64,000 nucleotides of DNA from Leifsonia sp. 466MF (lineage in GTDB: Bacteria; Actinomycetota; Actinomycetes; Actinomycetales; Microbacteriaceae). The stretch is taken from NCBI RefSeq assembly GCF_900100265.1, contig NZ_LT629696.1:2790001-2854000 (forward strand), in the 5' to 3' direction. A model generated the notes under the pieces. That model did no database searches. It was given only the letters and a program-made list of their open reading frames with translations, and had not been told where the DNA came from. Shown here one piece after another: positions 42,063 through 57,010 of this stretch (the stretch's first letter is position 1; each line of letters starts with the position of its first letter). The position numbers were made by a program, and so were the translations under genes.

Positions 42063-42126
42063 TACGGCACGCTGACCGAAGCTCCCAGGAAGGGCAGAGC
42101 AGCCTGCTTGAAGCCGCGGGCGCTCA
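42063..42126. repeat. Left 64-bp direct repeat bounding the Rhs island
   Basis: Identical to 56283-56346, with one mismatch and seven more matches after it. It is a detached copy of the 3' end of the alpha/beta hydrolase gene (encoding ARGFKQAALPFLGASVSVP and a stop). It marks the left edge of the 14.2-kb island. Confidence 0.95.
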
Positions 42127-42699
42127 ACGTGGTGGAGTCTGTGGTCCGAGGATCTCGGAAATAGCTGCAGCAGCCTCCTGAGCCCAGGCATACTCGGCGA
42201 CGAGGAAGTCGCTCGAGGGATGGCTCACCCGGATCGGGAGCGTGACCTTTGCTCCCACGACTTCGCAGGAGAGGTACCAAGCGGTGTAAGCGCCGGGACC
42301 GGCCACGCCCGCCCGGATGGATCGGAACTCTGCGGGATGAACAATCGTGAGCCCCTGGTCGCCTCGATGCCCGTGAACGATGGACAGACCTTCGCTCGAC
42401 ACAGCGACGACGAAGTGGGGGCTCACCCGCGGGGGTGTGCTCTCGCCACGGAGCTTCGCGATCTTCTTGACCGCATATATGGTGTCCAGCCCCCAGACGG
42501 CATTGAACGTCTGCGCCGCTCCCACCAGATCTCGGACATTCGACGTTCGTGCCGGCTCACCGTCGCGCCAGGTGCGTCGGGTGACAAGGGCGTGGGCGAC
42601 AGCCGCTGAGAGCACGCCGAGCAGTACGACTGCAACAGCGATGAGGGCGACCCCGTTGTGCTCGACCATCGGATTCATCACCGCGCTTCCGCTTTTCAC
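42124..42699 (-). CDS. Membrane protein, candidate Rhs immunity protein (local family B, copy 1)
   Basis: A 191-residue protein with an N-terminal transmembrane helix (VALIAVAVVLLGVLSAAVAHAL) followed by a beta-rich domain that reads like a bacterial PH domain (VAVSSEGLSIVHG then EFRSIRAG and TLPIRVSHPSSDF). It is a clear paralogue of the protein at 46857-47384: SPHFV-AVSSEGL-VHG-RGD-G-T-VH-EFRSI is shared. No tip gene precedes it now, so it is an orphan. The GTG at 42699 overlaps the previous stop; the ATG at 42678 is an alternative start. Its stop lies in the left direct repeat. Confidence 0.7.
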   Translation of the reverse strand: MKSGSAVMNPMVEHNGVALIAVAVVLLGVLSAAVAHALVTRRTWRDGEPARTSNVRDLVGAAQTFNAVWGLDTIYAVKKIAKLRGESTPPRVSPHFVVAVSSEGLSIVHGHRGDQGLTIVHPAEFRSIRAGVAGPGAYTAWYLSCEVVGAKVTLPIRVSHPSSDFLVAEYAWAQEAAAAISEILGPQTPPR

Positions 42700-43481
42700 G
42701 ATCGAATCCGGCGCGGGCGAATGGGCGGGGCGGGCGGGGGCACATCCCTGCTCACGCCCCGCACGCGTTCCAGGGCGGCCACGAGGTCACCGACGTTCTT
42801 GGATCGTCCCTCTTCCGTTCGCCAGCTATGGACCTGGAAGGGCAGAAGGATCTCATCTTCGCCGCTCCTGACGGTGAGGACGAGAACCTGCCTGCCGCCG
42901 ATGGTGGTCAGCTCGGAGCCCATCCAGATGCCGACGATCTCCGATGCGGCCAGATCGAGGATGACGCCGGGCCACAAGTAACCGGGCAGGATGCGAATGC
43001 CTTCGGGCGACACGTCCACTCGGGCAGTCGAGCTCGTAAGTGGGTCCGGGTCTTCGACGCCGAGGAGCATGGCGCTTACGAAGAGCCACTGGTCCCAATC
43101 GGTCCGGATGGACAAGCGCAAATGCGGTGCTCCGCTTTCTCGCTGGCTGACGACGAGGTTCTTCCAGTCTGACTCGGGGTCAGACCCGGCCCCGAGCGAC
43201 CGTCGGCGTTCAGCCAGCGAGACCTGACGCGCGACCGCGTCCTCGTAGCTCAGCCTGGAGATCATGAAGTAGCCGGGTTCGTTCGTCCACATCACCTGCA
43301 GCCACGCGGGTACGGCCAAGAATCCCGCACAGACCACAAACGCGAGCCAGGGTACAGCGAAGATGCCCGGCAACATGAGGTTCACCAGAACCAAGATGAC
43401 GGGAACCGACAACGCCCACGCAGCCAGCTTGGCCGCGAAGAAAAATCGCTTCCGTGCCTGCCAGTCCCAGTCATCAAACAT
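42696..43481 (-). CDS. Membrane protein, candidate Rhs immunity protein (local family A, copy 3)
   Basis: A 261-residue protein: short N-terminus FDDWDWQARKRFFF, two transmembrane helices (~15-60), then a PH-like beta domain (DVSPEGIRILPGYLWPGVILDL, IVGIWMGSELTTIGGRQVLVL, EILLPFQVHSW). Paralogous to 44943-45704 and 47875-48627, which also start with W-x-W-(D/T)-x-R-(K/R). It follows an Rhs-core scrap that has lost its tip, so it looks like an orphan kept after tip loss. The Pro/Arg-rich end overlaps the next gene by four bases. Confidence 0.7.
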   Translation of the reverse strand: MFDDWDWQARKRFFFAAKLAAWALSVPVILVLVNLMLPGIFAVPWLAFVVCAGFLAVPAWLQVMWTNEPGYFMISRLSYEDAVARQVSLAERRRSLGAGSDPESDWKNLVVSQRESGAPHLRLSIRTDWDQWLFVSAMLLGVEDPDPLTSSTARVDVSPEGIRILPGYLWPGVILDLAASEIVGIWMGSELTTIGGRQVLVLTVRSGEDEILLPFQVHSWRTEEGRSKNVGDLVAALERVRGVSRDVPPPAPPIRPRRIRS

Positions 43482-43529
43482 CGGTTTTCGCCACTTCCCG
43501 CTGAACCTTGGACTGGATGGTCAGAGATG

Positions 43530-43655
43530 TCACGCACCCACCGCGTCCCGGATCAGCGTCGTCGTGCCGCTCACCTCTGTGGTCTGCCCCGCCGGGTTGT
43601 AGCCGAACCTGGCGGGGTTCCGCCCCACCGATTGCGAGACCCGGTTACCCGCGGG
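43530..43655 (-). pseudogene. Rhs-core remnant without tip (cassette 6)
   Basis: The minus strand reads AGNRVSQSVG and ARFGYNPAGQTTEVSG and then jumps to TTTLIRDAVGA before a stop. These match two parts of the Rhs core about 50 codons apart, so an internal deletion joined them. No toxin domain remains. The next gene is a family A immunity paralogue. Confidence 0.75.
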
Positions 43656-43735
43656 CATCGAATCGAGACTCGAGGGTTGTGTCCACGTGCGATCCAGGCC
43701 CGGAGGCTCTACGCGGTGTCCGCCTTCGAGTTCGA

Positions 43736-44392
43736 TCAACGTGGACAACCAAGCTTCGTCTGTACCTTGCGGACGACCTCTCCAGTTTGGGCCTCGTTCA
43801 TGAGCGACCAAGAGTTTCGCGACTTTCCCCCGCCGAAAACGAAGTGTAGTTCTCCGATGGTGCCCCCGATATTCAATCCGACCTTCATTGAAGGCTTGGC
43901 CGCAATCGGTGTCGCCTGGTGCTCGCTCAGCGAAATGGAGGTAATTGATGTCTTTGGAAGCAGGAAGGCTCGTCGAGGCCGCGCAGAACCTACCCACCCT
44001 TGAATGGAATCGGAAACTACAACGATCGACACGCTTGGCCGCCCGAGTCGTCGTCTGGACACAAGGTTGGGGTCGCTGACAAGACTGCGAAACCGATACA
44101 GCTGATTACCCGGCTGGTCGTTGACGTTTTCGATCACAGCCTCCGGGAACATCCTCGTCAGAGCCTCTGTCCTCGCCGCACGCGACCGCCCGATCAGGGA
44201 CACCCCCGCGAGACAGCCACCGGCTACCACTGCGAAGCAACTGGGGAGCGCGAGAAGAACGGTCGGGGCGTCAACTCCCGCCACCGAGGCCTTGTAGAAA
44301 ACTCCGACGACGTCAACACCTACAAGGAGCATGCCAATCGTGACGGGAACCGCCACCCTGATGGAGCGTTTCTTCACCCTACGTACTTTCAT
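43736..44392 (-). CDS. Membrane protein, candidate immunity protein for tip 5 (local family C)
   Basis: A 218-residue protein with a basic N-terminus (MKVRRVKKRSIRV), two transmembrane helices (residues ~12-68), and a beta-rich C-terminal half ([43 protein letters not shown]) that again resembles a PH-like domain. No close paralogue in the window. It begins 13 bases after the tip-5 stop. Lower GC than flanking core genes. Immunity is inferred from position and topology only. Confidence 0.65.
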   Translation of the reverse strand: MKVRRVKKRSIRVAVPVTIGMLLVGVDVVGVFYKASVAGVDAPTVLLALPSCFAVVAGGCLAGVSLIGRSRAARTEALTRMFPEAVIENVNDQPGNQLYRFRSLVSDPNLVSRRRLGRPSVSIVVVSDSIQGWVGSARPRRAFLLPKTSITSISLSEHQATPIAAKPSMKVGLNIGGTIGELHFVFGGGKSRNSWSLMNEAQTGEVVRKVQTKLGCPR

Positions 44393-44405
44393 GAGAATGA
44401 GGAGG

Positions 44406-44940
44406 CTATCCTTCGAGCTGGTCTCTCAAACCCGCGAAGAACCCCACCAGGTCACCTTTGATGCCAAGGATTGCAAGGCCTTTGTCCAAGACCCGCGACG
44501 CGTCTAGAAGAGCTTCGATTGCCGCCCTGAACGCACTTGCGCTGATGCCTAGAACTGAGCCAATAGCGCCCAGCACGCAGCCAAATAGCGATTCTGTGGT
44601 CTGCCCGGCCGGGTTGTAGCCGAATCGGGTCGCGGTTCCGCCCACCGACTGCGAGACCCGGTTGCCAGCACGTCCCACAGATGCTGCCAAACTCGCTCGT
44701 TTACTCGTCATGCGGTCGGGACCACGTTCATTGCACCAGCTGGGCCCGAAGGCAGAAGCACACGGTCCAGGGACGAGTAGAACGTTCGAAAGACTACGGT
44801 CGTGCTTCGACACACCGGTCACCCCACTCATGGCGAGTCCCAGAGCGTTACCTGATCCGACGGTTGGTCCGACATTTCATACGCATAGATCCCCCTCGAC
44901 TTCTTCAGCGACACCGGGTTCGCCGACCTGTCAGTGCAAA
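44406..44940 (-). pseudogene. Degraded Rhs core with tip 5 (family II)
   Basis: Pieces of Rhs core are readable: VSLKKSRGIYAYEMSD near 44870-44935 (compare VSVKKSTVTYAYDSLD in the full gene) and AGNRVSQSVGGTATRFGYNPAGQTT at 44590-44672. The core runs straight into a ~62-residue hydrophobic tip, SLFGCVLGAIGSVLG to LVGFFAGLRDQLEG, which shares the GC-x-L and LD-x3-A patterns of tips 2 and 4. It lacks the VGPNSQN linker. A silent, truncated cassette. Confidence 0.7.
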
Positions 44941-44942
44941 CC

Positions 44943-45704
44943 TCAGCCCCACTGCCGTCGATGCTTCTCGGTGAGAGCAACCAGCTTCGCTACCTGCGTC
45001 GAACCACTGGTACGGTCCTTTGCGCGCTTGACCTCAAACGGCAGAAGCACCTCGTCGTTCTCCGCGCCGACTACGAGAACGAGAACGTTTGAGGAAGCGA
45101 TCGTTGGAATCGAACTTCCGTTCCACACTCCCACGATCCGCGAATAGGGAATCTGTAGGAGAATTCCTGGCCGCCAACGTCCCGCCGCGAGAACCACTCC
45201 TTCTGGATTCAACTCGAGGTAGGCGGGAACGCTGGTCCGCGGAAACCGCATACTCGGGAAAAGCAAGCCGCTCGCGACATAGAGATAGTCGTCCCAGACC
45301 ACCCGGGCCGATAATCTGACCCAATTTTCCAATTCAGCGCGGTCAAGATCGGAGTCAGAAGCCGAAGTATGCAAGTCGACGGGCAATAGCGGGACACCGA
45401 AGTTGTTGCCCGAATTGTTCCGCTGGGAAATTTGCGCCTGGGTCTCCTTACTGAAACGTAGCCGGCGAATGCCGTTCGACATGAACAGGTACCCCGGGTC
45501 GAACACCCAATTGTAGTGAATCCACGCGGGCGGCCCGATAAAGAGAAAAATCAGCGCAAAAAAAAGACCAGGGCTCATGGAAAATATCGGCCCAAATAAC
45601 AACACACTCATCGCTACCGAAACGAGCGCGTATGCCGCCCAACAGGCAATTGCGAACAGACGAATTCTCTTTCGTCGCGCGTCCCAGTTCCATCTCTCAG
45701 ACAT
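44943..45704 (-). CDS. Membrane protein, candidate immunity protein for tip 4 (local family A, copy 1)
   Basis: A 253-residue protein starting MSERWNWDARRKRIR, with two transmembrane helices (~15-62) followed by the motif DPGYLFMSNGIRRL, then a PH-like beta domain (YLELNPEGVVLAAGRWRPG, IVGVWNGSSIPTI, EVLLPFEVKR). Closest paralogue is 47875-48627, with GYLFMSN-IRRL, GRWRPG and LLPFE shared. Its ATG overlaps the tip-4 stop by eight bases, the same overlap as in cassette 2. AT-richer than the chromosome around it. Confidence 0.72.
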   Translation of the reverse strand: MSERWNWDARRKRIRLFAIACWAAYALVSVAMSVLLFGPIFSMSPGLFFALIFLFIGPPAWIHYNWVFDPGYLFMSNGIRRLRFSKETQAQISQRNNSGNNFGVPLLPVDLHTSASDSDLDRAELENWVRLSARVVWDDYLYVASGLLFPSMRFPRTSVPAYLELNPEGVVLAAGRWRPGILLQIPYSRIVGVWNGSSIPTIASSNVLVLVVGAENDEVLLPFEVKRAKDRTSGSTQVAKLVALTEKHRRQWG

Positions 45705-46826
45705 CGGCGACCCATCCAGAAATGGTAAGCAGAAGGCCAGTGAGATCGAAATTGACTCCGATGCCAGCGGCCACACGCTCGAACGCGCGTACGGTATCCA
45801 ACCGATCCCTCCGAGTGAGACCCGTGATCATCTCCTTCACGGATTGAAGGCTCTTGCCAATAGCTGCGGCAACGATGCTCAGAAGACACCCACCGATCCC
45901 AATAGCCTTGAACGCTCCCTTCGCAGCATCGGCGAGACTTGAGATGCAGCCAGCAATCGCTCCTACGGCCCCCGCTATTTTTCCAATCAAGAATGCGAGC
46001 GGGGTGAAGCTTGGCCCCTACACCGGTCAATAGCAGCACCCACCCCGCGATATCGAAGATCGTGGCTATGACGGACGCGATCGCTCCAATCGCGCTCACT
46101 ACAGCAATTGCGTCTTCTAGAAAGTGCCGATCCTGGATGTCGTTCTGCGAGTTGGGTCCGACCGCCTTCGACTTGCTGTAGCCGATGGGCTTGCCGCCCT
46201 TGTCGAAGACGGGGACCGGTGGCGGCGGGTTGGCGGGGACCGGGCGTTTGGTCGACGGGAGCAGCGGCGGGTGCCACGGCTGGGTTCCGGGTCGCTTGAA
46301 GATGTCCGAGATCGGCGCGAAGCCGAGCAGGTCGGTCAGCGTGGCCGGGTTGTTCTCGACGTAGGCGTAACGGTTCAGCGACTGAGGTCGCACTAGCAGA
46401 CCCCGCCATGGGTCCTGGCTTGTCCAGGAGGCCGCGGACGGGTCGTAGGCGCGCGCGTAGTAGTGGTTCAGGCCCTGGGTGGGGTCCGTGGTTTCACCGG
46501 TGAAGTTCTCCGGGGCCGACCAGCCGCTGGTCTCGAACTGCTGGGAACCCCAGTCGTCGTAGGACGACAATTGAGTGATCGACGCACCGGTCGCACCCGC
46601 GACGGTGGAACCCAACCGGTCCAGCAGATCCCACGTCGCCTCCCCGTTCGCGGTGACATGCTCGGCCAACGCACCCACCGCGTCCCGGATCAGCGTCGTC
46701 GTGCCGGCACCAGTCGTGGTCGACTGCACGGGATCCAGGCCGTCGAAGCTCGTACGCGTGGTGGAGGTGCCGTACCGAGTCTGCTCCGTCGCCGTGGTGC
46801 GGCGACCCAGACCGTCATAGCGCGAT
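45697..46826 (-). pseudogene. Silent Rhs cassette 4: core fragment, linker and frameshifted tip (family II)
   Basis: From 46826 the minus strand encodes ~140 residues of Rhs core (YDGLGRRTTATEQTRYG to YYARAYDPSAASWTSQDPWRG), a different linker ending KAVGPNSQNDIQDRH, and a hydrophobic tip. The tip is interrupted: the frame of DIAGWVLLLTGVG continues correctly only one base later (FTPLAFLIGKIAGAVGAIAG to LTISGWVADV). One extra C in the CCCC run at 46015-46018 would explain it. No start codon or promoter is apparent, so the cassette is silent as it stands. Confidence 0.8.
46401..46825 (-). repeat. Rhs-core direct repeat, silent copy
   Basis: Aligns without gaps to 50009-50433 in the full Rhs gene (offset 3608), about 97 percent identical by eye. 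A second block, 46125-46170, matches 49735-49781 around the GPNSQN linker. Recombination between copies would fuse tip 4 to the expressed Rhs protein. Confidence 0.9.
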
Positions 46827-46856
46827 GCCATCCTGAGTGCGGTTGCCGTCGGTAGC

Positions 46857-47384
46857 TCAGTCCGCACTTTCAGGCCCTAATTGCGTCGCGATCAGACCAG
46901 CAATCGTTTCCGCCCATTTGAAATTGGCGTTGAGAAAGTCGCTGGATGGGTCACTCACTCGGACGGGAAGGGTGATCGTCTGGTCTCGGATCACGCACTT
47001 GATAAACCAGGCAGTGAACACGGAGGGACCCAAGGTGCCGGTTTCGATCGACCTGAATTCCTCCGCGTGCACGGCCGTCACCCCTCGGTCTCCGCGCGCT
47101 CCGTGGACCAACCAGAGACCCTCGCTCGACACCGCCAACACAAAATGCGGGCTCACTTTTGGTCTCACAGCCTCGTCCCGCAACCGCGAGATCTTGGTCA
47201 CGGCACGCTTCGTGTCAAAGCCCCAAACCACGTTGTAGGTCTGAACCTCGCCGAGTAGCTGGCGTACGTTCGCTCTGCGAAGAGCAGCACCCTCTTTCCA
47301 CTGACGCCGAGTGCCGACAGCGTGTGCAACAGAGAAGGCCACTACAAGTGCCGGCACAATCAGTGCCACCAAGATCGGTTCCAC
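46857..47384 (-). CDS. Membrane protein, candidate immunity protein for tip 3 (local family B, copy 2)
   Basis: A 175-residue protein with one N-terminal transmembrane helix (ILVALIVPALVVAFSVAHAV) and a PH-like domain (LAVSSEGLWLVHGARGDRG, EEFRSIETG, TLPVRVSDPSSDFL). Paralogue of 42124-42699. The GTG at 47384 leaves a 20-base gap after tip 3; an ATG at 47447 in the same frame would overlap the tip. Immunity is inferred from position, size and topology. Confidence 0.7.
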   Translation of the reverse strand: MEPILVALIVPALVVAFSVAHAVGTRRQWKEGAALRRANVRQLLGEVQTYNVVWGFDTKRAVTKISRLRDEAVRPKVSPHFVLAVSSEGLWLVHGARGDRGVTAVHAEEFRSIETGTLGPSVFTAWFIKCVIRDQTITLPVRVSDPSSDFLNANFKWAETIAGLIATQLGPESAD

Positions 47385-47404
47385 GGTTAAGGCCCTACCT
47401 TTCC

Positions 47405-47884
47405 CTACCGCAAGGGCACGAGGCCATCGGCACTCTTCCATGCCCCTAGGCCGCCTATGGCTGCTCCTGCGGCATCGATAGCTGCACGAACGATGGGCGT
47501 CAGGATTTTTCTGAGGCCCAGGGTTACCGCAGATGCGCCAGCAGGCACCAAAGCGAGGATCACGTTGACAATGCAGTCGACGTTGACCCCAGACGCAAGA
47601 CACCCCAGAACCGCTCCCGCGATTCCCAGAACTGCAGACGCAATGGCGCCGATTATCGCGCCCACTGGACCTGCAAACAGTGCCGCGAAACCAAGTGCAC
47701 CGCTGATAACCCCCAAGATATTGCCCCAAGTCTGGAGTTGCTTTCGAAGTTCTTTTGCCTCTGGAGCGTGGCGTGCCTGCTCGTCGTTCTGGCTGTTGGG
47801 CCCGACCGGCTTCTGCTTCTCGGGAGACGGTTGGATGCGCGGAGGTTGCGGTGCGACGGGCGGTTTGTCGAATCTCACTGCCAC
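47405..47884 (-). CDS. Orphan Rhs tip 3 with linker (family I)
   Basis: About 158 residues. It begins with the Pro-rich Rhs linker (FDKPPVAPQPPRIQPSP), then PVGPNSQNDEQARH, then a Gly/Ala-rich hydrophobic domain (GALGFAALFAGPVGAIIGAI to GGLGAWKSADGLVPLR) with a Cys pair around NVD. It parallels the tip of the full Rhs protein (GPVG, CX8C, CI-N-I). No Rhs core and no good ribosome site precede it; GTG codons at 47884 or 47878 overlap the previous gene. It is probably a silent donor tip. Confidence 0.7.
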   Translation of the reverse strand: MAVRFDKPPVAPQPPRIQPSPEKQKPVGPNSQNDEQARHAPEAKELRKQLQTWGNILGVISGALGFAALFAGPVGAIIGAIASAVLGIAGAVLGCLASGVNVDCIVNVILALVPAGASAVTLGLRKILTPIVRAAIDAAGAAIGGLGAWKSADGLVPLR

Positions 47885-48627
47885 CTGCGCTGGTTCACAA
47901 TGTGGACGAGATCCTTGACGGCATCCCTGTTCCTTGGCTGTCCCTTCCCGCGCATGATTTCGAACGGCAACAGAACCCGATCCTGGCCAGTATCGACAAC
48001 GAGGACGAGCACACGTCCAGAGTCGATCGTCGCGATCTTCCTGCCGTCCCACACCCCGACGATGCTCGATATCGGAAGCTCGAACACAGTGCCCGGCCGC
48101 CAGCGACCGGCCGAAAGCGTCACAGCGTCCGCACTGATATCGAGACGTGCAGCCTGGGTCGTGTGCGGCAGTGGTCTCCCCGGCCAAAGGATGCTGCTGG
48201 ACACGAGTAGGTACTCCTCCCACACCACTCGGGCCGAAGTGACGTTCTGCTGACGCGACTCGTGATTGGGCGCCGACGGCACCTCGGCAGCGGTCCGCAA
48301 GTCGTTCGGCAAGGAGGGAACACCGTAAGGGTTTCCGCGATTGCTGTTCCGCGAAATCTGAGACTCAACCAGGTCGCTGGCGTACAAACGGCGAATTCTG
48401 TTCGACATGAAGAGGTAGCCCGGGAAATGAATCCACGCAATGTGGATCCAGGCCGGGGGAACGACGAAGGCCGCGATCACCACGAAAAACAAAAAGGGGT
48501 GGGCCGGGAGGAGCGGCCAACGCAACAGAGCGGCCGCCATGCCGACAACAACGAAGACGGACCAGGTCACTACTGCAATGATCCGAACTCTCTGGCGCCT
48601 TTGCGTCCACGTCCAACGATCAGGCAT
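47875..48627 (-). CDS. Membrane protein, candidate immunity protein for tip 2 (local family A, copy 2)
   Basis: A 250-residue protein starting MPDRWTWTQRRQRVR, two transmembrane helices, then FPGYLFMSNRIRRLY and a PH-like beta domain (DISADAVTLSAGRWRPG, IVGVWDGRKIATI, RVLLPFEIMRG). Close paralogue of 44943-45704. The ATG at 48627 overlaps the tip-2 stop by eight bases. The conserved GYLFMSN-IRRL after the membrane pair is a useful family signature. Confidence 0.72.
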   Translation of the reverse strand: MPDRWTWTQRRQRVRIIAVVTWSVFVVVGMAAALLRWPLLPAHPFLFFVVIAAFVVPPAWIHIAWIHFPGYLFMSNRIRRLYASDLVESQISRNSNRGNPYGVPSLPNDLRTAAEVPSAPNHESRQQNVTSARVVWEEYLLVSSSILWPGRPLPHTTQAARLDISADAVTLSAGRWRPGTVFELPISSIVGVWDGRKIATIDSGRVLVLVVDTGQDRVLLPFEIMRGKGQPRNRDAVKDLVHIVNQRRWQ

Positions 48628-48889
48628 TCGAAACCAAGCCTCCCAGGGTGAGAAGGAGCCCTGCCAGATCGAAGTTGACTCCCACACCGGCGACTACTCG
48701 TTCGAAGGCTCGAACCGCATCCAAGGTTTCCCGCCGCGTCAATCCTTGGATGAAGTCCTTCGCCAGAGACAGCCTTACCCCAATCGCTGCAGCGATCGCG
48801 CCAAGTGCGCACCCAGCAATACTGAAGCCATTGAAAGTGCTGAAGGCCGCATCGGCAGGGCTGGCAGCGCCACACGTCTGCAACCCCAC
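48620..48889 (-). pseudogene. Truncated Rhs tip 2 (family II)
   Basis: 89 codons reading GFSIAGCALGAIAAAIGV to LTRRETLDAVRAFERVVAGVG and NFDLAGLLLTLGGLVSNA. This is homologous to the second half of tip 4 (LTRR-LD-VRAFERV-AG-GVNFDL-GLLLT is shared). Linker and Rhs core are missing. The frame opens immediately after the previous immunity stop with a GTG and no ribosome site. A 5'-truncated donor fragment. Confidence 0.72.
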
Positions 48890-49357
48890 TTAGATGGCGC
48901 CGACGATTGCGGCAACAATGAACGCAAGCGACGCGCCTATCGAGATCAGGCAGATAGCAATCACGAATGCCAGGCCGTTGCCTTTCCGCCCAACCACCTC
49001 ACCGCCGTTCAACGTCAGGGCACGGTGCCATCCCGTCATCACTGAACCGCGGACCTGCGCGATGTGCAGGCGCTCCTGAATCTGACGCAAGTGGTCCAGC
49101 TGACGCTCAGTCGGGAGAGGCGTGGTCCAGTTGCCATAGACGGACAGTACGTAGGGCTCTTCGGCTCCGAGAAGGGTGATCACAAGCGAGCCCAGCACCG
49201 TGAACCTGCAAGTGACGCGGGATGCCGGAGATCGGAATACAAGGCCGCGATCGTTTCGCAGCTCGAGCATCCCCGCTTCGAGAGTCAGGATGCAGGATTC
49301 CCACCGTGCGCCGTTCAGCTTGCTCTTGTTCCAGAGGATTATCGAGGCGAAGTCCAT
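48890..49357 (-). CDS. Candidate immunity protein for the expressed Rhs tip (local family D)
   Basis: A 155-residue protein with the reverse topology of its neighbours: an N-terminal PH-like beta domain (ILWNKSKLNGARWESCILTLEAG, then MLELRNDRGLVFRS), a linker helix, and two C-terminal transmembrane segments (GLAFVIAICLISIGASLAFIVAAIVGAI). Its ATG overlaps the rhs stop by one base (TGATG), so it is made together with the toxin. That coupling is the best positional evidence for immunity in the island. Confidence 0.75.
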   Translation of the reverse strand: MDFASIILWNKSKLNGARWESCILTLEAGMLELRNDRGLVFRSPASRVTCRFTVLGSLVITLLGAEEPYVLSVYGNWTTPLPTERQLDHLRQIQERLHIAQVRGSVMTGWHRALTLNGGEVVGRKGNGLAFVIAICLISIGASLAFIVAAIVGAI

Positions 49358-52300
49358 CAGTGCTTACATCTCCCGGGCTCGATGGTGCAACCCATTCCCG
49401 TTATCAGGTTGAATAGGTCGGTCGAATTGCCAAGCGCGCTCATCCCGCCGTCGAAGGCTTGAAGCAATATTGGAACCAACTGCCCCAACGCCTTCTTGAC
49501 CGCGACAGCGACACCGAGACCAAATCCCGCGCCCGCCACAGCAGCGCCAATGATGTTGAGTATGCACGACGCATTGATGGTCGGCGTGCACGCCAAGAAG
49601 GCGGAAACTGCGCCTGCAATTGCGCCGACAACCTTCGCAATTAGGCCGACTGGACCGGGCGCGTATCCAAGGATGCCCGCAACAAACCCGACGATCCCAA
49701 GGACGTTGGAGACAACCGCTTTCCAATCTACGTCATGCCGATCCTGGATGTTGTTCTGCGAGTTGGGCCCGACCGCCTTCGGCTTCTCCACCTTTGGGGT
49801 CTCGCGGGGGTACTGCGGTGCGACGGGTGGTTTGGAGCGGTCTGCGACGTTGGTGTGCGCCTGCACGGGGGTCGCACCACAACCCACGGGGAGGGCGTCG
49901 GATTTCGGGTTGACGCGTGCGCAGAGGTTGCCGTCGATGTCGAGATTGCTGGTCGGGTTGTTCCAGGCGTACCCGTATCGGTGCTGCGACCGCGGCTCAT
50001 CCGTGGTTCCCCGCCACGGGTCCTGGCTTGTCCAGGCGGCGGCCGACGGGTCGTAGGCGCGCGCGTAGTAGTGGTTCAGGCCCTGGGTGGGGTCGGTGGT
50101 TTCACCGGTGAAGTTCTCCGGGGCGGACCAGCCGGTGGTTTCGAACTGCTGGGAACCCCAGTCGTCGTAGGACGACAATTGAGTGATCGAGGCACCGGTC
50201 GCACCGGCGACGGTGGAACCCAGCCGGTCCAGCAGATCCCACGTCGCCTCCCCGTTCGCGGTGACATGCTCGGCCAACGCACCCACCGCGTCCCGGATCA
50301 GCGTCGTCGTGCCGGCACCAGTCGTGGTCGACTGCACGGGATCCAGGCCGTCGAAGCTCGTACGCGTGGTGGAGGTGCCGTACCGAGTCTGCTCCGTCGC
50401 CGTGGTGCGGCGACCCAGACCGTCGTAGCCGTACGAGGTGGTCCGGCCCTCCCGGCTCACCTGCGTGGTCTGGCCGGCCGGGTTGTAGCCGAATCGGGTC
50501 GCGGTTCCGCCCACCGACTGCGAGACACGGTTGCCGGCGCCGTCGTAGGAGTACGACGCGATCCCCGCCGCGACGCCCCGACCGCGGCCGGCCGTCTCGG
50601 ATTGGGTCAGTTGGTTGGCGTCATTGAACGTCGCCTGCTGACGGAAATCGCCATCCTTCGCGCCCGAGCGCGACCACCCGGTGCGATTCCCAGCCGGATC
50701 GTACGCGTACGTGTTCTTCTCACCCGACGACGACCTGGACGCAGTCAGCCGGTCCAACGAGTCATACGCATAGGTCACCGTCGACTTCTTCACCGAGACC
50801 GGCTTCACCGGCACGTCGGAGCCGGCCTCCGCCAACTGGTTCGGCGCCGACTGGATCGACCGCGATGCCGCGACAACGTTGCCGTTTCCGTCGTAGGTGT
50901 ACCCGTACGAGAGCGAGCCGCCGTCAGCCACCGGATGTGCGGGAGCGGGCACCGCCCGACCGTTCAGGTAGGCGTCGGTGCTCTCACAGAGCGGGGCCGA
51001 GCTCGTCGACCGGGCGCGCGCACCGAGGTAGCCCGCGACGCCCGTGCACTTCGTTGCGGATGCATCACCCTTCGCATAGGGCGCGGCGGTCGGAGTCGGC
51101 GACGGCGTGGACGGTTTTGCCGGCTGCGGTGTCGTGTGGGTGATCCCGGTCACCCGGTCGGCGGCGTCATAGGCGTACCGACTGGTCACGCCCGTCGAGC
51201 GTGTCTGCTCCGTCAGAAGCCCTGCCGCATCCCACCGGTAGGACAGGGAGCCCCACGGCGACGATTGCGACGTCGCGTTGCCCGCCTGGTCGTAGGTGTA
51301 CGCGAGCTTCTGGCCCGTGGGCAGCGTCACCTGAGTGGTCTGACCTGCCTTGTCGTAAGCGGTCGACAGCCTGCCGCCCTGCTGGTCCACCTGCGTCGTC
51401 GTGCGCCCGTCCTCGTCGTAGACGAAGCCGGTGACGCCACCCGGGTCCTTCACCGCGATGAGATTCTGCTCGGCGTCGTATTCGAAGGTCGCTACGGCGC
51501 CGGCCGCGTCCTGCCGTGTCACGCTTCCGCGACGGTCGTAGCTGTACGCCGTCGTCGCGCCGGTCCCGGCGACGACCGACGCCGTCCGGCCCGCCGCGGT
51601 GTAGGTGGTCCTGGTCGTGTTGCCGACGGCGTTGCGCTCACTCGTGACCCGGCCGGCGGCATCCACCGTGTACGTGGTGGCATGACCGTTCGGATCGGTG
51701 ACTCGGGCCAGATTGCCGTCGGGGTCATACGCGTAGCCGGTTGTGACGTTCGCGGTCGGAGTGGTCTTCCCGCCCTTCGAGTAGGCCTCGACCACCGCGG
51801 TCAGTTGGCCCTTGGGGTCGTAGCTGTAGCGCGTCGTGCTGCCATTCGGCGTCGACACCGAGGTCTGCTGGCCGGCGGCATCGTAGCCGTATGAGGTGAC
51901 GGCGCCGGTCGGGTCGGTCACCGATATCTGCCTGCCGTCTGCATCGAACGCGAACCGCGTCGTGTGACCGTTGGGATCGGTCACCGACGTCGGCTGCCCG
52001 GCGGCGTCGTAGTCGTAGGTCGTGACGTTGCCTGCAGGGTCGGTCGTGGACGCGACCTGGCCCGTCGGCGTGTAGGCGGTGCTCGAGATCCGGCCCAGCG
52101 GATCGGTGGTCGTGGTCAGGTTTCCCGCCGGGTCGTACGCGAAAGAGGTGGTCTCGCCGAGGGGCGACGTGGATGCGGTGACGCGACCGGCCGCGTCGTA
52201 AGCGAAGACCGTGGCATGACCATTGCGGTTCGTCACCGACGTGAGGTTGCCATCCACGTCATACCCGTAGTCCGTGTGCTTGCCCAAGCCGTCCGTGATC

Positions 52301-55300
52301 CGGGTGACCCGATCCAGCACGTCGTACGTGTAACGGGTCCGGACGCCGTCCGGATCGACCTGCTGAACCATTCGGCCGACAGCGTCGTAGCCGTAGCGCG
52401 TTGTCGCGCCGGTCGCGTCCTTCTGCTCGGTGAGGTTGCCCATGGCGTCGTACCGGTAGGTGGTCGTCGCGCCGCTCGGTGACGTGACCGACGTCACGTT
52501 CCCTACGCCGTCGTATGCCCGGGTCCAGGTCCCGCCGTTGGCATCGGTCGTCGTGGTCACCCGGTCCTGGCCGTCTGTCGCGTACGTCGTTGCGGCCCCG
52601 AGGGGATCCTTCTGGCCCAGCAGAGAGTCCTCGGAATCGTATGAATAGGCGATCGACCCTCCGCCCGGGCTGGTCGACGACGTGAGATGGAAGAGCGCGT
52701 CCCACGCGAACGTGCTCTTCGCTCCGAGGGGATCGGTGACCGCGGCGACGTGATCGTTCGGCTCGTAGCTGTAGGCGGTCACGCCGCCTGCGGCGTCGCT
52801 TACCTGCGTCAGCCGGTCGCCGCTGTCCCACCCGTAGGCGGTCGCCTGGCCGTTCGGGTCCGTCACGGAGGTGATGCGGCCGGCACCGTCGTACGCGTAG
52901 CGGGTGATGGCTCCGGTTGGGTCGGTGACCGTCGTGACGTTGCCCGACGCGTCGTGGCCGTAGGTCGTCGCGGCGCCCGACGGCTGCGTGACGGAGACGA
53001 GGTTGCCGCTCGCGTCGTACCGGTTCGTGACGGTGGTTCCATCGGGCTGATGGATCGCCGTGAGGCGACCGGCCCCGTCGTATTCGTATGCCCACGTCCG
53101 GGCGGCACCCTTCGCGCCGCCGGGGTCCGTCTTCGTCGCGACACGACCCGAGGGTGTGTAGGTGTACGTGGTCACTCGGCCGTTGGGGGCGGTCTCGGTC
53201 AGGATGTTGCCGGAACCGTCGTACGTGTACGTCGTGGTGTGCGCGTTCTCGTCCGTCGAACGCGTGACGTTGTTCTGGCCGTCGAAGCGGAACGATGCCG
53301 TCGAGCCGTCAGGATGCTTCACCTTCGTCACCCGGAACGAAGCGTCGAAGGAGTAGACGCTGACCCGTCCGAGGGTGTCGGTATAGGTCGTCTGGCCCGG
53401 GGTGGAGTAGTCGAGCGTCCGGAGCTTCCCCGCTGCATCCCACTGTTTGGTGATCCTGCCGGCGGAGTCGTACTCGTTCTTCAGATACTGCGTGCCTGTC
53501 GCATCGATCGCCGTCACCAGCTGATGCGTGGCGTCGTAGCCGAAGCGATGCGTCCGCCCGTCCGGGAGAGTCACGGTGGTGAGGTCACCCGCCGCGTCGT
53601 ACGACAGCGACCACCGGTCTCCGCCGGGTCGGACGAAGGCCGCCACGCGACCGACGGCATCCGATTCGACCTGAATCACCTGGCCTCCGGGGACGGTGAT
53701 CGAGCTCAGCGGCGCGAACTGGTGCACCTCGGGATTCGCAGGGCCATAGCTCAGCGCGGTGGTGTTCCCGCTCGCGTCCGTGTGAGAGATCAACTCGCCG
53801 ATGCCCTCGATGTCGCCGGCATCGAAAACCCACGACTCGCCGGAGACATCCTTCAGCTGCAGGTGTCCGCCGGGTTGTTCGGAAAGTGTCTGATGCAACC
53901 CCGGTTCCGCGGAGTAGCCTCCGTGGCCGTCCGGCGCGAAGACGAAGCTCGCTCCGTCGCCCCGGACCACCATCACGCTGCCGTCGCTGAACCGTTGGGC
54001 TCGCGCGCCCAGACCGAACGACCATCCCGCCCCGACGCGGGAGAGCCGGCCGTCCTGCGAGTTGTAGAAGAGAGTCAGTTCGGTGGTGGATCCGCCGAGC
54101 CCGGGCAAGGAGAAGAGCTTCTCCTGCTCCACGAGATTGCCGGTGGAGAAGGAGAACGGTTCGCCGCCGTAGGTGAGGTAGTTCTGCAGTCCGAGCATGC
54201 GCCAGCGGGCGATCTCCGCGGCCGTCGGCGGCGCGGGCCAGCCGCCGGTGACGGGGTCGGTGCAGTCGAAGCCCTGCGTCTCGAGCCATTTACCCAAGCC
54301 GGTGAGCACTCCGCTTGCGATGTAGGAGAAGCCGGCATCCGCCATCGCGCGGTCGAGGTTGTTGTCGAGGAACAGGGCTTCGAGATGCGTGAACGCCCCG
54401 GGCACGCCGTCGAACTCGCTGCCGGGGAAGTTGCCGTTGTTCCCCATGTTCTTCGCCGGTCGCGTCGTATAGGTGGGCAGGTTCCCGACAAGCGAGTTCG
54501 ACAGCGCGTCGTCAGGAGCCCTTCCGCGCGAGTAGACCTGAGAGCCGCCCAGCGCGGGATCGGCGCCACCCCACGATTCGCCGTCGAGAGTGTTGAAGCC
54601 GATGCCCAACGTCGCAACCGGGCTCGACGCCGTGATCATGCCGGCTCGCGTCTCCCGGCTGATGAACGGGACGGACGGATCTTCACGGGTGATCACGACC
54701 GAGGCGCGGCAGTCCTGCCGCAGAAGCGCTGCCACCTGCTGGGCCAGCCGGATGTTGTATCCGAGCTCTGAGACGGGCGGCGCCGGCGTCGTCACATGGC
54801 CCTCATCATTGTCCGGGTCGAGAACGACGACCGGGCCCGGCGGCGGGACGAACTTGATGCCGATGACGACGAACTGCGAGAGGTGCGTGGACTCCCCTCG
54901 CACCACACCCTTCTTCTCGTCGTAGTACGACGGCAGGGCCGCCCAGGGCTCGCCCGCCTTCTCACGGGTGTAGATCTTCAAGCTCGACGGGTCGACGCCC
55001 TGCGCCTCGATCGCATCCGTGTCCGGTGCGATGGAGAGCGCGACTCCGGGGACGATGTCGGAGACGATCGGGCCTTTCTTCCCACCGCCACGAGTGTGAA
55101 CGCGCTTGGCCGGGAAAGCGGTGTGGGGTTCACCCGCCGCGTCGGTCGCGCTGATCTGAACCGGCTCGGAGACCGGGATTCCGCCTCCTGGCTGCTCCGC
55201 CCGCGCGGACACGAGGGCGTCTCGTGCGGCCGCGCCGACGGAGACGGACAGTTCTCCGGGCAGATCGTTGCCGGAGAACGTGGCCGAGACACCCGCGTCC

Positions 55301-55548
55301 TTTGCGGAGATCGTCACTTCTGCGTCCGGTCGGACGGTGCCCTCGGTCTCGGGCGCCGGCGGCTGCGTCGCGGCCGCGATACGGACCGCGGATTCCGTCG
55401 CCGCAGCGCGGACCTCGGCGAGCGTCGCGGCGGCGGTACGCCGCGCCGTCTCCCAAGGCGACGCCTCTGCGGGGGTCGCCGTGCCGCTGACGGTCAGCGC
55501 GGTGATCGCCGTCGCGGCCACGAGGCCGCGCAGGATGGTTGCGCGCAT
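49357..55548 (-). CDS. Secreted Rhs/YD-repeat polymorphic toxin with pore-like tip
   Basis: A 2063-residue protein. Residues 1-30 are a Sec signal peptide. A beta domain (~60-235) ends in STHLSQFVVIG. Residues ~238-435 resemble an Amidase_3 fold (VVLDPDND, ELGYNIRLAQQVAALL, LEALFLDNN) with catalytic residues altered. A DUF6531-like module follows (EPFSFSTGNLVEQEKLF, ~457 on), then YD repeats from ~655 to ~1715 (repeated GYD-A-G-R-T and DPxG units) and the Rhs core YYARAYDPSAAAWTSQDPWRG near 1825. The VGPNSQNNIQDRH linker is near 1928. The tip (~1940-2063) is Gly/Ala-rich and hydrophobic with a Cys pair, consistent with membrane insertion. Overlaps the surface gene and the immunity gene by one base each. 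Confidence 0.88.
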   Translation of the reverse strand: MRATILRGLVAATAITALTVSGTATPAEASPWETARRTAAATLAEVRAAATESAVRIAAATQPPAPETEGTVRPDAEVTISAKDAGVSATFSGNDLPGELSVSVGAAARDALVSARAEQPGGGIPVSEPVQISATDAAGEPHTAFPAKRVHTRGGGKKGPIVSDIVPGVALSIAPDTDAIEAQGVDPSSLKIYTREKAGEPWAALPSYYDEKKGVVRGESTHLSQFVVIGIKFVPPPGPVVVLDPDNDEGHVTTPAPPVSELGYNIRLAQQVAALLRQDCRASVVITREDPSVPFISRETRAGMITASSPVATLGIGFNTLDGESWGGADPALGGSQVYSRGRAPDDALSNSLVGNLPTYTTRPAKNMGNNGNFPGSEFDGVPGAFTHLEALFLDNNLDRAMADAGFSYIASGVLTGLGKWLETQGFDCTDPVTGGWPAPPTAAEIARWRMLGLQNYLTYGGEPFSFSTGNLVEQEKLFSLPGLGGSTTELTLFYNSQDGRLSRVGAGWSFGLGARAQRFSDGSVMVVRGDGASFVFAPDGHGGYSAEPGLHQTLSEQPGGHLQLKDVSGESWVFDAGDIEGIGELISHTDASGNTTALSYGPANPEVHQFAPLSSITVPGGQVIQVESDAVGRVAAFVRPGGDRWSLSYDAAGDLTTVTLPDGRTHRFGYDATHQLVTAIDATGTQYLKNEYDSAGRITKQWDAAGKLRTLDYSTPGQTTYTDTLGRVSVYSFDASFRVTKVKHPDGSTASFRFDGQNNVTRSTDENAHTTTYTYDGSGNILTETAPNGRVTTYTYTPSGRVATKTDPGGAKGAARTWAYEYDGAGRLTAIHQPDGTTVTNRYDASGNLVSVTQPSGAATTYGHDASGNVTTVTDPTGAITRYAYDGAGRITSVTDPNGQATAYGWDSGDRLTQVSDAAGGVTAYSYEPNDHVAAVTDPLGAKSTFAWDALFHLTSSTSPGGGSIAYSYDSEDSLLGQKDPLGAATTYATDGQDRVTTTTDANGGTWTRAYDGVGNVTSVTSPSGATTTYRYDAMGNLTEQKDATGATTRYGYDAVGRMVQQVDPDGVRTRYTYDVLDRVTRITDGLGKHTDYGYDVDGNLTSVTNRNGHATVFAYDAAGRVTASTSPLGETTSFAYDPAGNLTTTTDPLGRISSTAYTPTGQVASTTDPAGNVTTYDYDAAGQPTSVTDPNGHTTRFAFDADGRQISVTDPTGAVTSYGYDAAGQQTSVSTPNGSTTRYSYDPKGQLTAVVEAYSKGGKTTPTANVTTGYAYDPDGNLARVTDPNGHATTYTVDAAGRVTSERNAVGNTTRTTYTAAGRTASVVAGTGATTAYSYDRRGSVTRQDAAGAVATFEYDAEQNLIAVKDPGGVTGFVYDEDGRTTTQVDQQGGRLSTAYDKAGQTTQVTLPTGQKLAYTYDQAGNATSQSSPWGSLSYRWDAAGLLTEQTRSTGVTSRYAYDAADRVTGITHTTPQPAKPSTPSPTPTAAPYAKGDASATKCTGVAGYLGARARSTSSAPLCESTDAYLNGRAVPAPAHPVADGGSLSYGYTYDGNGNVVAASRSIQSAPNQLAEAGSDVPVKPVSVKKSTVTYAYDSLDRLTASRSSSGEKNTYAYDPAGNRTGWSRSGAKDGDFRQQATFNDANQLTQSETAGRGRGVAAGIASYSYDGAGNRVSQSVGGTATRFGYNPAGQTTQVSREGRTTSYGYDGLGRRTTATEQTRYGTSTTRTSFDGLDPVQSTTTGAGTTTLIRDAVGALAEHVTANGEATWDLLDRLGSTVAGATGASITQLSSYDDWGSQQFETTGWSAPENFTGETTDPTQGLNHYYARAYDPSAAAWTSQDPWRGTTDEPRSQHRYGYAWNNPTSNLDIDGNLCARVNPKSDALPVGCGATPVQAHTNVADRSKPPVAPQYPRETPKVEKPKAVGPNSQNNIQDRHDVDWKAVVSNVLGIVGFVAGILGYAPGPVGLIAKVVGAIAGAVSAFLACTPTINASCILNIIGAAVAGAGFGLGVAVAVKKALGQLVPILLQAFDGGMSALGNSTDLFNLITGMGCTIEPGRCKH
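50009..50433 (-). repeat. Rhs-core direct repeat, expressed copy
   Basis: Partner of 46401-46825. It encodes the Rhs segment from YDGLGRR to SQDPWRG, directly before the variable linker and tip of the full-length gene. Confidence 0.9.
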
Positions 55549-56228
55549 CAGACGACCGCGTCCGTGCGAACGGCGGCGGCGAACAGGTGACGCTTGCGCG
55601 CCAGAACCAGCCCCGTGGCGATCAGCCCGGCGGCAAGTGCGGCGATCAGCCAGATCGCGATGGTCGCCCCCGTGCTGGCCAGACCGTCTCTTCCGATCAC
55701 ACAGGCGGCCAGCTCGATCGCGTCGGACACACCGTCGGCGTCGTAGTCCTCATGCCCGGTCGCGCACGCGGTCGTACCGCAGATGACGACCGACGCCCAG
55801 CGCGGAACTCCGTTGCCGTTGAGGTCGGCGTTGCCCGTGTAGCACGTTGAAGACCCGCACACGATCTGGCGGGCGAAGTCCGGGATGCCATCGCCGACGG
55901 AGTCCTTCGTCGGGGATGCGCACGCGGTCGTGCCGCACGCCATGACCTCGACCCAGTCGGGGACGCCGTCATCGTCGCGGTCCTCACGACCGGATGCGCA
56001 GGTGGCGGATCCGCAGACGGCCCGTTCCACGGTGTCCGGGACGGTGTCGCGATCGGCGTCGCAGGCGGAGACGTCCGCCGTGGCGGGACATGGCGCCGCC
56101 GCGGATGTGATTGCCGTGGCCGCGAGCGGCGCAGCAGCCAGCGTCAGCCCGGCGCAGAGCAGCGCCGTGGCGAGGACGGAGAGAAGCAGCCGGGAAGCTG
56201 CGGAGGGGAGATGAGAAATGCGCCGCAC
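55548..56228 (-). CDS. LAxTG-anchored surface protein with Ca-loop/Cys repeats
   Basis: A 226-residue exported protein. The signal peptide is residues 1-~44. About five ~33-residue repeats follow, each with a calcium-loop-like segment (DxDxDGVPD, as in REDRDDDGVPDWVE) and a CG-x3-C pair (CGTTACA). The C-terminus is a sorting signal: LASTG, a hydrophobic helix, and RKRH, matching class E sortase substrates (LAxTG). GTG start at 56228; the stop overlaps the rhs start (TGATG). It may tether or display the Rhs protein on the wall. Confidence 0.8.
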   Translation of the reverse strand: MRRISHLPSAASRLLLSVLATALLCAGLTLAAAPLAATAITSAAAPCPATADVSACDADRDTVPDTVERAVCGSATCASGREDRDDDGVPDWVEVMACGTTACASPTKDSVGDGIPDFARQIVCGSSTCYTGNADLNGNGVPRWASVVICGTTACATGHEDYDADGVSDAIELAACVIGRDGLASTGATIAIWLIAALAAGLIATGLVLARKRHLFAAAVRTDAVV

Positions 56229-56248
56229 ACTAAGTACGACGCACCTCG

Positions 56249-56267
56249 TTCGCGTTCATGACGCGAA
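56249..56267. promoter_or_regulatory. Perfect 19-bp dyad upstream of the island operon
   Basis: TTCGCGT-N5-ACGCGAA, 21 bp upstream of the surface-protein start and 16 bp inside the right direct repeat. A candidate operator for the island operon, or a hairpin ending the hydrolase transcript. Confidence 0.5.
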
Positions 56268-56281
56268 TATCAGATAGAAGA

Positions 56282-57010
56282 TTACGGCACGCTGACCGAA
56301 GCTCCCAGGAAGGGCAGAGCAGCCTGCTTGAAGCCGCGGGCGCTCAGCGTGGTGACGTGGTTGCGACGCGGCAGCACGACGAGCTCGGCGCTCAACAGAC
56401 GCGCGGCCTCGTCGGCACCGTCCGCCACCGGATCCGCATCGCCGACGACGAGCATCGTGGGCACGGAGCTCGCCAGCGGGAGCGGATGCGCGGCCATGCC
56501 GGCGGCACAGGCCGCGAGCGCCTCGCGATCGACGCCCGGAGCCTGGCGCAGCGATGCGAGCAGTGGCGCCAGCGGGCTGGCGGGGTCGAGGGCGGAGGCG
56601 TCGTCACGGAGGGCGGACTGCACCGCCGAGACGCCCCAGTGACCGAACTGCTCGACCGTGCCGACGCCGCCGATCACGAGCCGGCGGACGCGATCGGGCG
56701 CGAGTGCGGCGAGCGCGAGCGACACCCAGCTGCCCATCGAGTAGCCCATCACATCCACGCGTTCGACATCCTGCTCGTCGAGGACGGCCAGGAGGTCGCG
56801 GGCGAGGATGTCGGGCGAGTACGCGTCGGCGTCGTGCGGCGCCTCGCTGGCGCCGTGACCGCGGAGGTCCGGGACGATCGCGCCGCGACCCGCCTCGGCG
56901 AGCGCACGGATCCAGCCGGTCGCGTCCCAGGTGAGCGAGCCGGTCGACGCGAAGCCGTGGACCAGCAGCACGGGGTCGTCGCCCGGGTGCCTGTCGACGT
57001 GGATGCGCAT
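56282..57010 (-). CDS. Alpha/beta hydrolase, possible detached E2 acyltransferase-like domain
   Basis: A 242-residue alpha/beta-hydrolase-fold protein. The oxyanion segment is LLVHGFAS, the nucleophile Ser is in MGYSMGS, the acid is near VVGDADPVA, and the His is in PRRNHVTTL. It starts six bases after a free lipoyl-domain gene and follows E1 subunits. AcoC-type E2 proteins of acetoin dehydrogenase consist of a lipoyl domain plus exactly this fold, so the gene may be the second half of a split E2. Its last 64 bp are duplicated at 42063-42126, where the Rhs island ends. Confidence 0.82.
   Translation of the reverse strand: MRIHVDRHPGDDPVLLVHGFASTGSLTWDATGWIRALAEAGRGAIVPDLRGHGASEAPHDADAYSPDILARDLLAVLDEQDVERVDVMGYSMGSWVSLALAALAPDRVRRLVIGGVGTVEQFGHWGVSAVQSALRDDASALDPASPLAPLLASLRQAPGVDREALAACAAGMAAHPLPLASSVPTMLVVGDADPVADGADEAARLLSAELVVLPRRNHVTTLSARGFKQAALPFLGASVSVP
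56283..56346. repeat. Right 64-bp direct repeat bounding the Rhs island
   Basis: The 3' end of the hydrolase gene, identical to 42063-42126. The intact gene lies to the right, so this copy is the functional 3' end. Confidence 0.95.

What the first reader, a model, noticed from the sequence alone, without database searches (positions are those of the whole stretch)
42063..56346. Rhs toxin island with an array of silent tip/immunity cassettes
One full Rhs gene is followed on the same strand by five further tip remnants (48620-48889, 47405-47884, 45697-46826, 44406-44940, 43530-43655), each followed by a small membrane-protein gene. This is the layout of a polymorphic toxin with orphan C-terminal modules, known for Rhs/CDI systems in general. 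Here every preserved tip is a Gly-rich hydrophobic domain and every partner a membrane protein, rather than the usual nuclease mixture. The combination with a sortase-anchored protein in an actinobacterium may be undescribed.
Basis: partly seen in the sequence, partly recalled or inferred. Interest (0 to 1): 0.88.

Follow-up and report, generated by a model that had tools for sequence, protein, structure and literature searches.

The report
Rhs toxin gene trailing old immunities
A bacterium of the genus Leifsonia carries one large surface toxin gene followed by the mostly broken remains of earlier toxin tips, each with an intact small membrane protein that probably protects against it; the layout is known from other bacteria, but the protective proteins may be a new structural class.

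Summary
The layout is real and far beyond chance. A 14.2-kb island, bounded by a 72-bp repeat and absent at this site in 23 of 25 Leifsonia genomes holding the neighbouring gene, carries one intact Rhs gene and, behind it, five tip or core remnants and seven open membrane-protein genes. Only remnant C is a whole tip domain, without delivery part; B and E are truncated, D is frame-broken, F has no tip. So I read it as immunity genes stacked by successive tip displacement, not as a store of usable silent toxins. At the same site in another Leifsonia genome, our decayed tip E (75%) and its partner (61%) form the live end of a full Rhs gene. Hydrophobic tips are the Leifsonia trend (12 of 14 loci). 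Toxicity and immunity are inferred. New here: a partner modelled as a transmembrane hairpin plus PH-superfold domain, an amidase-like N-terminal Rhs domain without zinc histidines, and an adjacent LAxTG protein. The array is a known kind (Rhs/CDI orphans, V. cholerae T6SS arrays, S. aureus TspA/TsaI). Verdict: new variant of a known kind.

The parts
56283..56354 (.). direct repeat, hydrolase-side copy (3' end of the neighbouring hydrolase gene)
   Evidence: 99% to 42063-42134; single copy in relatives without the island
42063..42134 (.). direct repeat, AsnC-side copy; island end
55548..56228 (-). LAxTG (LASTG) protein, 226 aa
   Evidence: below cut-off in NCBIfam; upstream of Rhs in 10 of 10 flanks searched
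49357..55548 (-). full Rhs gene, 2063 aa, signal-like N-terminus (by eye), DUF6531, 31 RHS repeats
54184..54876 (-). Rhs residues ~225-455: Amidase_3-like domain without zinc histidines at the aligned positions
49360..49785 (-). tip A (live): VGPNSQN border, then hydrophobic helices
48890..49357 (-). imm A, 155 aa, one C-terminal hydrophobic segment; start overlaps the Rhs stop
   Evidence: 54% homolog in L. virtsii, L034
48620..48889 (-). remnant B: C-terminal piece of a tip related to tip D
47875..48627 (-). imm B, TM hairpin + PH-like, family of D and F1
47405..47867 (-). tip C: whole domain with border motif, no delivery part
46857..47441 (-). imm C, TM + probable PH-like (start uncertain)
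45697..46881 (-). remnant D: Rhs core 3' end (93% DNA identity) + tip D, frame break near 45990
44943..45704 (-). imm D, TM hairpin + PH superfold (model)
44406..44948 (-). remnant E: core scraps + about the last 60 residues of tip E
43736..44392 (-). imm E, 218 aa
   Evidence: 61% over 207 aa to the partner of the live tip in G009
43530..43655 (-). remnant F: Rhs core scraps, no tip
42696..43481 (-). imm F1, family of B and D
42124..42699 (-). imm F2, 54% to imm C

Best explanation
A secreted, cell-wall-associated Rhs polymorphic toxin locus, used against related bacteria. The live Rhs gene carries a membrane-active tip (A) with its immunity gene. New [core 3' end - tip - immunity] modules have repeatedly entered at the 3' end of the Rhs gene; each entry pushed the previous module downstream. 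Displaced tips lose their delivery part and decay; the immunity genes are kept, giving the cell protection against neighbours that still use the older tips. The partners act in the membrane: a transmembrane anchor plus, in most, a PH-superfold domain that binds or blocks the inserted tip. The whole block was gained at, or lost from, the 3' end of the hydrolase gene as an island bounded by a 72-bp repeat. SHOWN by sequence: anatomy, decay state, sharing of modules between species, empty sites. SHOWN by a model of moderate confidence: PH fold of imm D. INFERRED: toxicity, membrane permeabilisation, immunity, pairing, surface delivery and order of arrival.
Against: No functional data. The tip A model is poor (pLDDT 53). 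GxxxG exceeds shuffles (p<0.05) in 3 of 19 tips only, not in tip A. Pairing is by position: the CL147 tip most like tip A in the genus loci (40%) is followed by two other partner types, and the L. virtsii imm-A homolog stands behind a tip-C end. Imm A shows no profile link to the PH families. Distant relatives of imm C/F2 exist with no toxin recognised nearby (5 of 6 weak-hit loci read), so PH-TM proteins may have another primary role. No codon-level test of selection on the partners was made. No integrase among the 10 island ORFs scanned. Arrival order is read from position and decay only; B, second in the row, is more truncated than C.
Confidence: 0.72

Rival explanations
1. Reservoir: the displaced modules are silent toxin cassettes kept for recombination into the live gene (as shown for Salmonella LT2).
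For: D keeps 481 bp of core at 93% identity, close to the 522 bp at 95% reported for Salmonella (PMC3967940, passages); tip C is whole and its border region is 75% identical to that of tip A over 89 columns; G261 and G018 carry partial cores with open frames running into other tips.
Against: D is frame-broken, E and B truncated, F empty; C has only a short stretch of moderate homology, so at most one of five could be re-used as it stands.
Confidence: 0.15
2. Plain decay: the island is a degenerating toxin locus and the partners are drifting relics.
For: Most displaced tips are broken; array GC is 0.61 against 0.70-0.72 in the flanks.
Against: 7 of 7 partner frames open; close homologs elsewhere (imm D 92%; imm F1 92%; imm B 76%).
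Confidence: 0.08
3. The hydrophobic tips are not toxins but membrane anchors or entry domains of a surface protein, and the partners are assembly factors.
For: Tips have no family match above cut-off; in other genera hydrophobic stretches precede an HNH nuclease or, weakly, a deaminase-like domain (L141, L136); relatives of the partners exist without a recognised toxin.
Against: Tip A ends soon after the hydrophobic stretch with an overlapping partner gene; tips vary between genomes while the core is conserved, the mark of polymorphic toxins.
Confidence: 0.1

Closest known systems
Rhs/CDI orphan toxin-immunity modules ('silent cassettes'; Salmonella LT2 rhs, E. coli EC93/EC869, D. dadantii)
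   Same: Full gene followed by tip fragments with core scraps, each with an immunity gene (PMC3150448, PMC3967940, passages).
   Different: There the tested orphan toxins are functional; here 4 of 5 displaced tips are broken and the tips are hydrophobic. The carrier has a signal-like N-terminus (by eye); T6SS genes were not searched for here.
V. cholerae T6SS immunity gene arrays by sequential effector displacement (PMC5361080, passages)
   Same: A new module displaces the effector, old immunity genes stay behind in a row.
   Different: Different delivery system; here recognisable tip and core scraps lie between the immunity genes.
S. aureus TspA/TsaI and EsxX/ExiCD (PMC9484751 passages; PMC12744356 abstract and section 12)
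   Same: Membrane-depolarising tips, rows or islands of membrane immunity proteins; for TspA a toxin fragment within the row.
   Different: T7SS toxins, not Rhs; TsaI is DUF443 with five predicted TMs, not TM + PH.
S. suis WapA Rhs toxins with SrtB (PMC12704120, passages)
   Same: Gram-positive Rhs, old pairs pushed downstream, sortase link, N-terminal cell-wall fragment.
   Different: There sortase and SecF-like genes sit upstream; here a sortase substrate (LAxTG) does, and the one sortase gene found is elsewhere in the genome.
Tse5 (PMC10684867, PMC9637101: listing and abstract starts) and CDI ionophore tips (PMC11630599 passages)
   Same: Rhs or CdiA delivering a membrane-active tip; CDI ionophores with hydrophobic immunity proteins.
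   Different: No sequence relation was tested; the CDI immunity proteins are two-helix hairpins.
PH-domain proteins of leaderless bacteriocin clusters (PMC11580447, passages)
   Same: Membrane-linked PH domains beside bacteriocin peptides, with a reported role in immunity and transport.
   Different: No Pfam PH or bPH match here; paired with Rhs tips, not small peptides.

Membership tests
Rhs polymorphic toxin | RHS/YD repeats plus Rhs-associated core domain | tested here: met
   RHS_repeat E 1.2e-182; TIGR03696 47.9 bits, cut-off 32.5
Rhs polymorphic toxin | conserved core, variable C-terminal tip between strains | tested here: met
   cores 59-74% identical to the window's in 12 aligned loci with different tips
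Rhs polymorphic toxin | tip toxic, neutralised by its cognate partner | not testable with these tools
   needs expression
Orphan Rhs-CT/immunity array | downstream tip fragments with core homology and an immunity gene | tested here: met
   D, E, F have core homology; partners follow
Orphan Rhs-CT/immunity array | orphan tips found on full-length genes elsewhere | tested here: met
   tip E in G009, 75% over 61 aa; not shown for B, C or D
Orphan Rhs-CT/immunity array | orphan tips intact and re-usable | tested here: not met
   1 of 5 whole
Pore-forming/ionophore tip | several hydrophobic helices, no enzyme domain | tested here: met
   tip A: 4 segments; no Pfam match for tip A
Pore-forming/ionophore tip | glycine-zipper enrichment | tested here: inconclusive
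   GxxxG p<0.05 in 3 of 19 tips, tip A p 0.14; small-xxx-small p<0.05 in 3 of 19, tip A p 0.004
Pore-forming/ionophore tip | dissipates membrane potential | not testable with these tools
   none
PH-superfold membrane immunity protein | TM segment(s) plus PH fold in imm B/D/F1 | tested here: met
PH-superfold membrane immunity protein | same in imm C/F2 and imm E | tested here: inconclusive
   C/F2 to B/D and E to C/F2 beat 30 of 30 shuffles; E to B/D reached by 1 of 30; no models
PH-superfold membrane immunity protein | same in imm A | tested here: inconclusive
   no profile link: 18 and 8 of 30 shuffles reach the score
PH-superfold membrane immunity protein | protects against the cognate tip | not testable with these tools
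   needs expression
Amidase_3 | homology of the Rhs N-terminal domain | tested here: met
   profile hit to 4rn7 E 3.3e-7; Pfam 13 of 17 members at E<=1, best 1.4e-7, window's own 0.0014 below cut-off
Amidase_3 | zinc-binding histidines (which residues: recalled) | tested here: not met
   in the alignment to 4rn7 the first falls in a gap, the second meets F; no H there in any of 17 rows
Integrative element | flanking direct repeat with empty sites in relatives | tested here: met
   but G009 has only partial copies
Integrative element | own integrase | tested here: not met
   no integrase family among the 10 island ORFs scanned with Pfam

The most novel reading that the evidence does not exclude
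Leifsonia runs an Rhs weapon system specialised in membrane-active tips, tethered to the wall by a catalytically dead amidase-like domain together with an LAxTG partner, and answered by a previously unnamed immunity class: transmembrane-anchored PH-superfold proteins, kept in rows as a heritable record of past tips.
Probability: 0.4. Interest if true: 0.7.

Novelty: new variant of a known kind. Interest (0 to 1): 0.5.

Why it matters
It extends displaced-module immunity arrays to an actinobacterial genus in which most tips are hydrophobic, and offers a candidate immunity fold (TM + PH) that my paper searches did not turn up for polymorphic toxins. If the PH part blocks membrane-inserted toxins, it would join polymorphic toxin immunity with the PH proteins of leaderless bacteriocin clusters, and make testable how a membrane protein stops a pore. 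The same site, empty in 23 of 25 relatives and carrying a different live tip in one, is a natural series for timing module turnover.

Tried and rejected
Silent-cassette reservoir as the main reading: not preferred because 4 of 5 displaced tips are broken or gone. Glycine zipper: GxxxG above shuffles in only 3 of 19 tips, so I claim hydrophobic and Gly-rich, not zipper. Imm A as a PH protein: no support. General att-type repeats at Rhs islands: in the 10 loci flank-compared (about 10 kb upstream, 14-15 kb downstream, best 8 matches printed) I saw no repeat like the window's; G009's second locus has a 104-bp repeat that is an internal piece of the upstream permease gene, and G001 has a 939-bp, 73% match between flanks that I did not follow. 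Promoter/terminator scan: nothing above shuffles. Pfam, NCBIfam and PADLOC gave no family above a curated cut-off for tips or partners; the Gly-rich tip-C frame gave weak matches, best pdsO E 1.1e-4 (22 bits, cut-off 152) and LeoBC E 0.0012, which I take as composition. The TM count depends on threshold: at KD 1.6 L040 drops to 0, at 1.4 it has 3. The Fisher value 0.012 (13 of 16 Leifsonia tips against 10 of 25 others) ignores shared ancestry; it counts orphan tips and leaves out three Leifsonia loci with distant cores (L047, L102, L152), L045 (cut by the contig end) and L139 (same as L079). The 25 come from 16 of the 24 non-Leifsonia genomes with a core hit (L079 is from one of those 16), plus L083. 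Paper searches: PH domain + immunity protein + polymorphic toxin + membrane returned 0; Leifsonia + Rhs returned 2 papers, of which I saw listing and abstract starts only.
Full report
WHAT IS THERE. On the minus strand an LAxTG protein (55548-56228) is followed by a 2063-aa Rhs gene (49357-55548) and then by five tip or core remnants and seven small membrane-protein genes down to 42124. At E<=0.001 RHS repeats occur at only two other places in the genome.

NOT CHANCE. Remnant D carries 481 bp at 93% identity to the 3' core of the live Rhs gene; E has 74 bp at 96%; F has 86 columns at 85% and a 38-bp perfect match; C has 89 columns at 75% around the border motif. Tips A, C and D share the border VGPNSQN. 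Partner start codons overlap or closely follow the preceding tip stop: A 1 nt overlap, B and D 8 nt overlap, E 13 nt behind. Starts of B and D were chosen to fit homologs; the start of C is uncertain.

STATE OF THE TIPS. C is whole as a domain but has no delivery part. B is a C-terminal piece, 59% identical over 80 residues to the end of D. D is broken near 45,990. E lacks most of its tip. F has none. All seven partners are open, and where homologs were found the lengths agree: imm B 250 aa against P0002 251, imm F1 261 against P0004 261 (92% identical over 247), imm E 218 against 225 in G009. This imbalance is why I prefer an immunity array to a toxin reservoir; no test of selection on codons was made.

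MODULES MOVE. At the same chromosomal site in G009, between the same hydrolase, AsnC-type regulator and aldehyde dehydrogenase genes, a full Rhs gene ends in a tip 75% identical to our remnant E over 61 residues, followed by a partner 61% identical to imm E over 207. L. virtsii holds a tip-C end (68% over 31 residues) and an imm-A homolog (54% over 130) behind its live tip; an imm-C-like N-terminus between them is seen by eye only. G022 has an imm-B/D relative with a tip-border and an imm-C scrap near a contig start; no Rhs core was found in the 14 kb read there. A second G009 locus holds a tip-C end (71% over 38). Relatives of tip A: 2 proteins among 1259 candidates, 73% and 42% identical. 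Partner family B/D/F1 is narrow: 2 of 398 family genomes, and 7 proteins in the large protein search, in which only the 7998 candidates sharing most words were scored.

AGAINST STRICT PAIRS. The CL147 tip that resembles tip A (40%) is followed by two other partner types, not by an imm-A relative, and the L. virtsii imm-A homolog stands behind a tip-C end. Pairing is thus by position only.

THE ISLAND. 25 of 28 genus genomes have the AsnC gene; in 23 of 25 the hydrolase gene lies next to it with one copy of the repeat. Only the window genome and G009 carry an Rhs island there. The window's two repeat copies differ at 1 of 72 positions; the close relative G020 (aldehyde dehydrogenase 99%) is empty with one copy. 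G009 has two partial matches, to repeat positions 25-72 on the hydrolase side and 5-40 on the AsnC side, so its island did not arise in quite the same way or has eroded. No integrase family was found among the 10 island ORFs scanned. Whether G020 never had the island or lost it cannot be told.

TIP CLASS. Of 14 Leifsonia-type Rhs loci (one, L044, with a broken core frame), 12 have tips with two or more hydrophobic segments at KD 1.4; L036 has one and L039 none. With orphan tips the count is 13 of 16. In other Microbacteriaceae 10 of 25 do; these come from 16 of the 24 non-Leifsonia genomes with a core hit, plus L083. Of 10 of those 25 tips scanned, one matches HNH nucleases and one, weakly, a deaminase; of 10 of the 16 Leifsonia tips scanned, one gave a weak match to a family of unknown function. 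Rhs core ends of this type occur in 30 of 398 family genomes and 17 of 85 genera. G261 has one full Rhs and three partial cores with open frames in a row, so arrays are not special to Leifsonia.

DELIVERY. Rhs residues 225-455 form a domain conserved across 17 loci (relatives 46-83% identical to the window's) that matches N-acetylmuramoyl-L-alanine amidases (4rn7 E 3.3e-7; Pfam Amidase_3 in 13 of 17 members at E<=1, the window's own at 0.0014 and below the cut-off). Aligned to 4rn7, the first zinc histidine falls in a gap and the second meets phenylalanine, with no histidine there in any of the 17 rows; the first glutamate is kept, the second aligns in one of the two alignments printed (which residues bind zinc is recalled). 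I read it as a wall-binding pseudo-amidase (inference). The LAxTG protein was found upstream in 10 of 10 flanks searched. Of 22 locus rows (18 distinct loci after dropping four duplicates) all hold an LAxTG match, but in L079 the frame read was not clearly that protein, leaving 17 of 18; NCBIfam anchor models stayed below cut-off for the window's copy. One sortase gene was found in the genome, outside the window. That LAxTG is the class E sortase signal is recalled, not from a call.

COMPARISON. Orphan Rhs and CDI modules, including the words 'silent cassettes', are long known (PMC3150448, PMC3967940; passages). Sequential displacement leaving immunity arrays is the published model for V. cholerae (PMC5361080; passages). 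Rows of membrane immunity genes beside a membrane-depolarising toxin are known in S. aureus (PMC9484751 passages; PMC12744356 abstract and section 12). CDI ionophore tips form a large family (PMC11630599 passages). S. suis WapA joins Rhs, sortase and displaced pairs (PMC12704120 passages). [quoted passage not shown] Zhang et al. 2012 list a pore-forming tip with RHS carriers and describe arrays of toxin cassettes (PMC3482391 passages). What I did not find in print, is a TM-PH immunity class for polymorphic toxins or a Leifsonia Rhs system; the library holds open-licence papers only, and for these searches I saw listings and abstract starts.

VERDICT. A real and well-formed example of a known kind with a new combination of parts. 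Interest 0.5.

Noticed in passing
window 54184-54876: Rhs N-terminal domain is Amidase_3-like but has no histidine at the aligned zinc positions in the 17 loci aligned: a likely pseudo-amidase, perhaps a wall-binding module.
   Followed up: yes
window 55548-56228: An LAxTG protein with short DxDxDG-like repeats (by eye) sits directly upstream of Rhs in the 10 Leifsonia flanks searched.
   Followed up: partly
L036 13495-13598 and L087 3901-4004 (G009): A 104-bp internal piece of the upstream permease gene recurs (89%) behind a second Rhs gene, next to a tip-C end.
   Followed up: partly
L094 365-1290 and the downstream flank in L044 (G001): A 939-bp, 73% identical direct match between the two flanks of the Rhs locus; not explained.
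   Followed up: no
L162, L164: PH-type and AGYTL-type membrane parts occur together in chromosomal loci with no toxin gene recognised within 1.5 kb.
   Followed up: partly
L136 (G261): One full Rhs plus three partial cores with open frames in about 10 kb; one tip deaminase-like (weak), two without hydrophobic segments.
   Followed up: partly
G000:C1:846707 and 3330955: Two further large open frames with weak RHS repeats elsewhere in the genome.
   Followed up: no
L047 and L102 (G022): A second, distant Rhs core type (about 28% identity) in the same genus; the tip in L047 is hydrophobic too.
   Followed up: no
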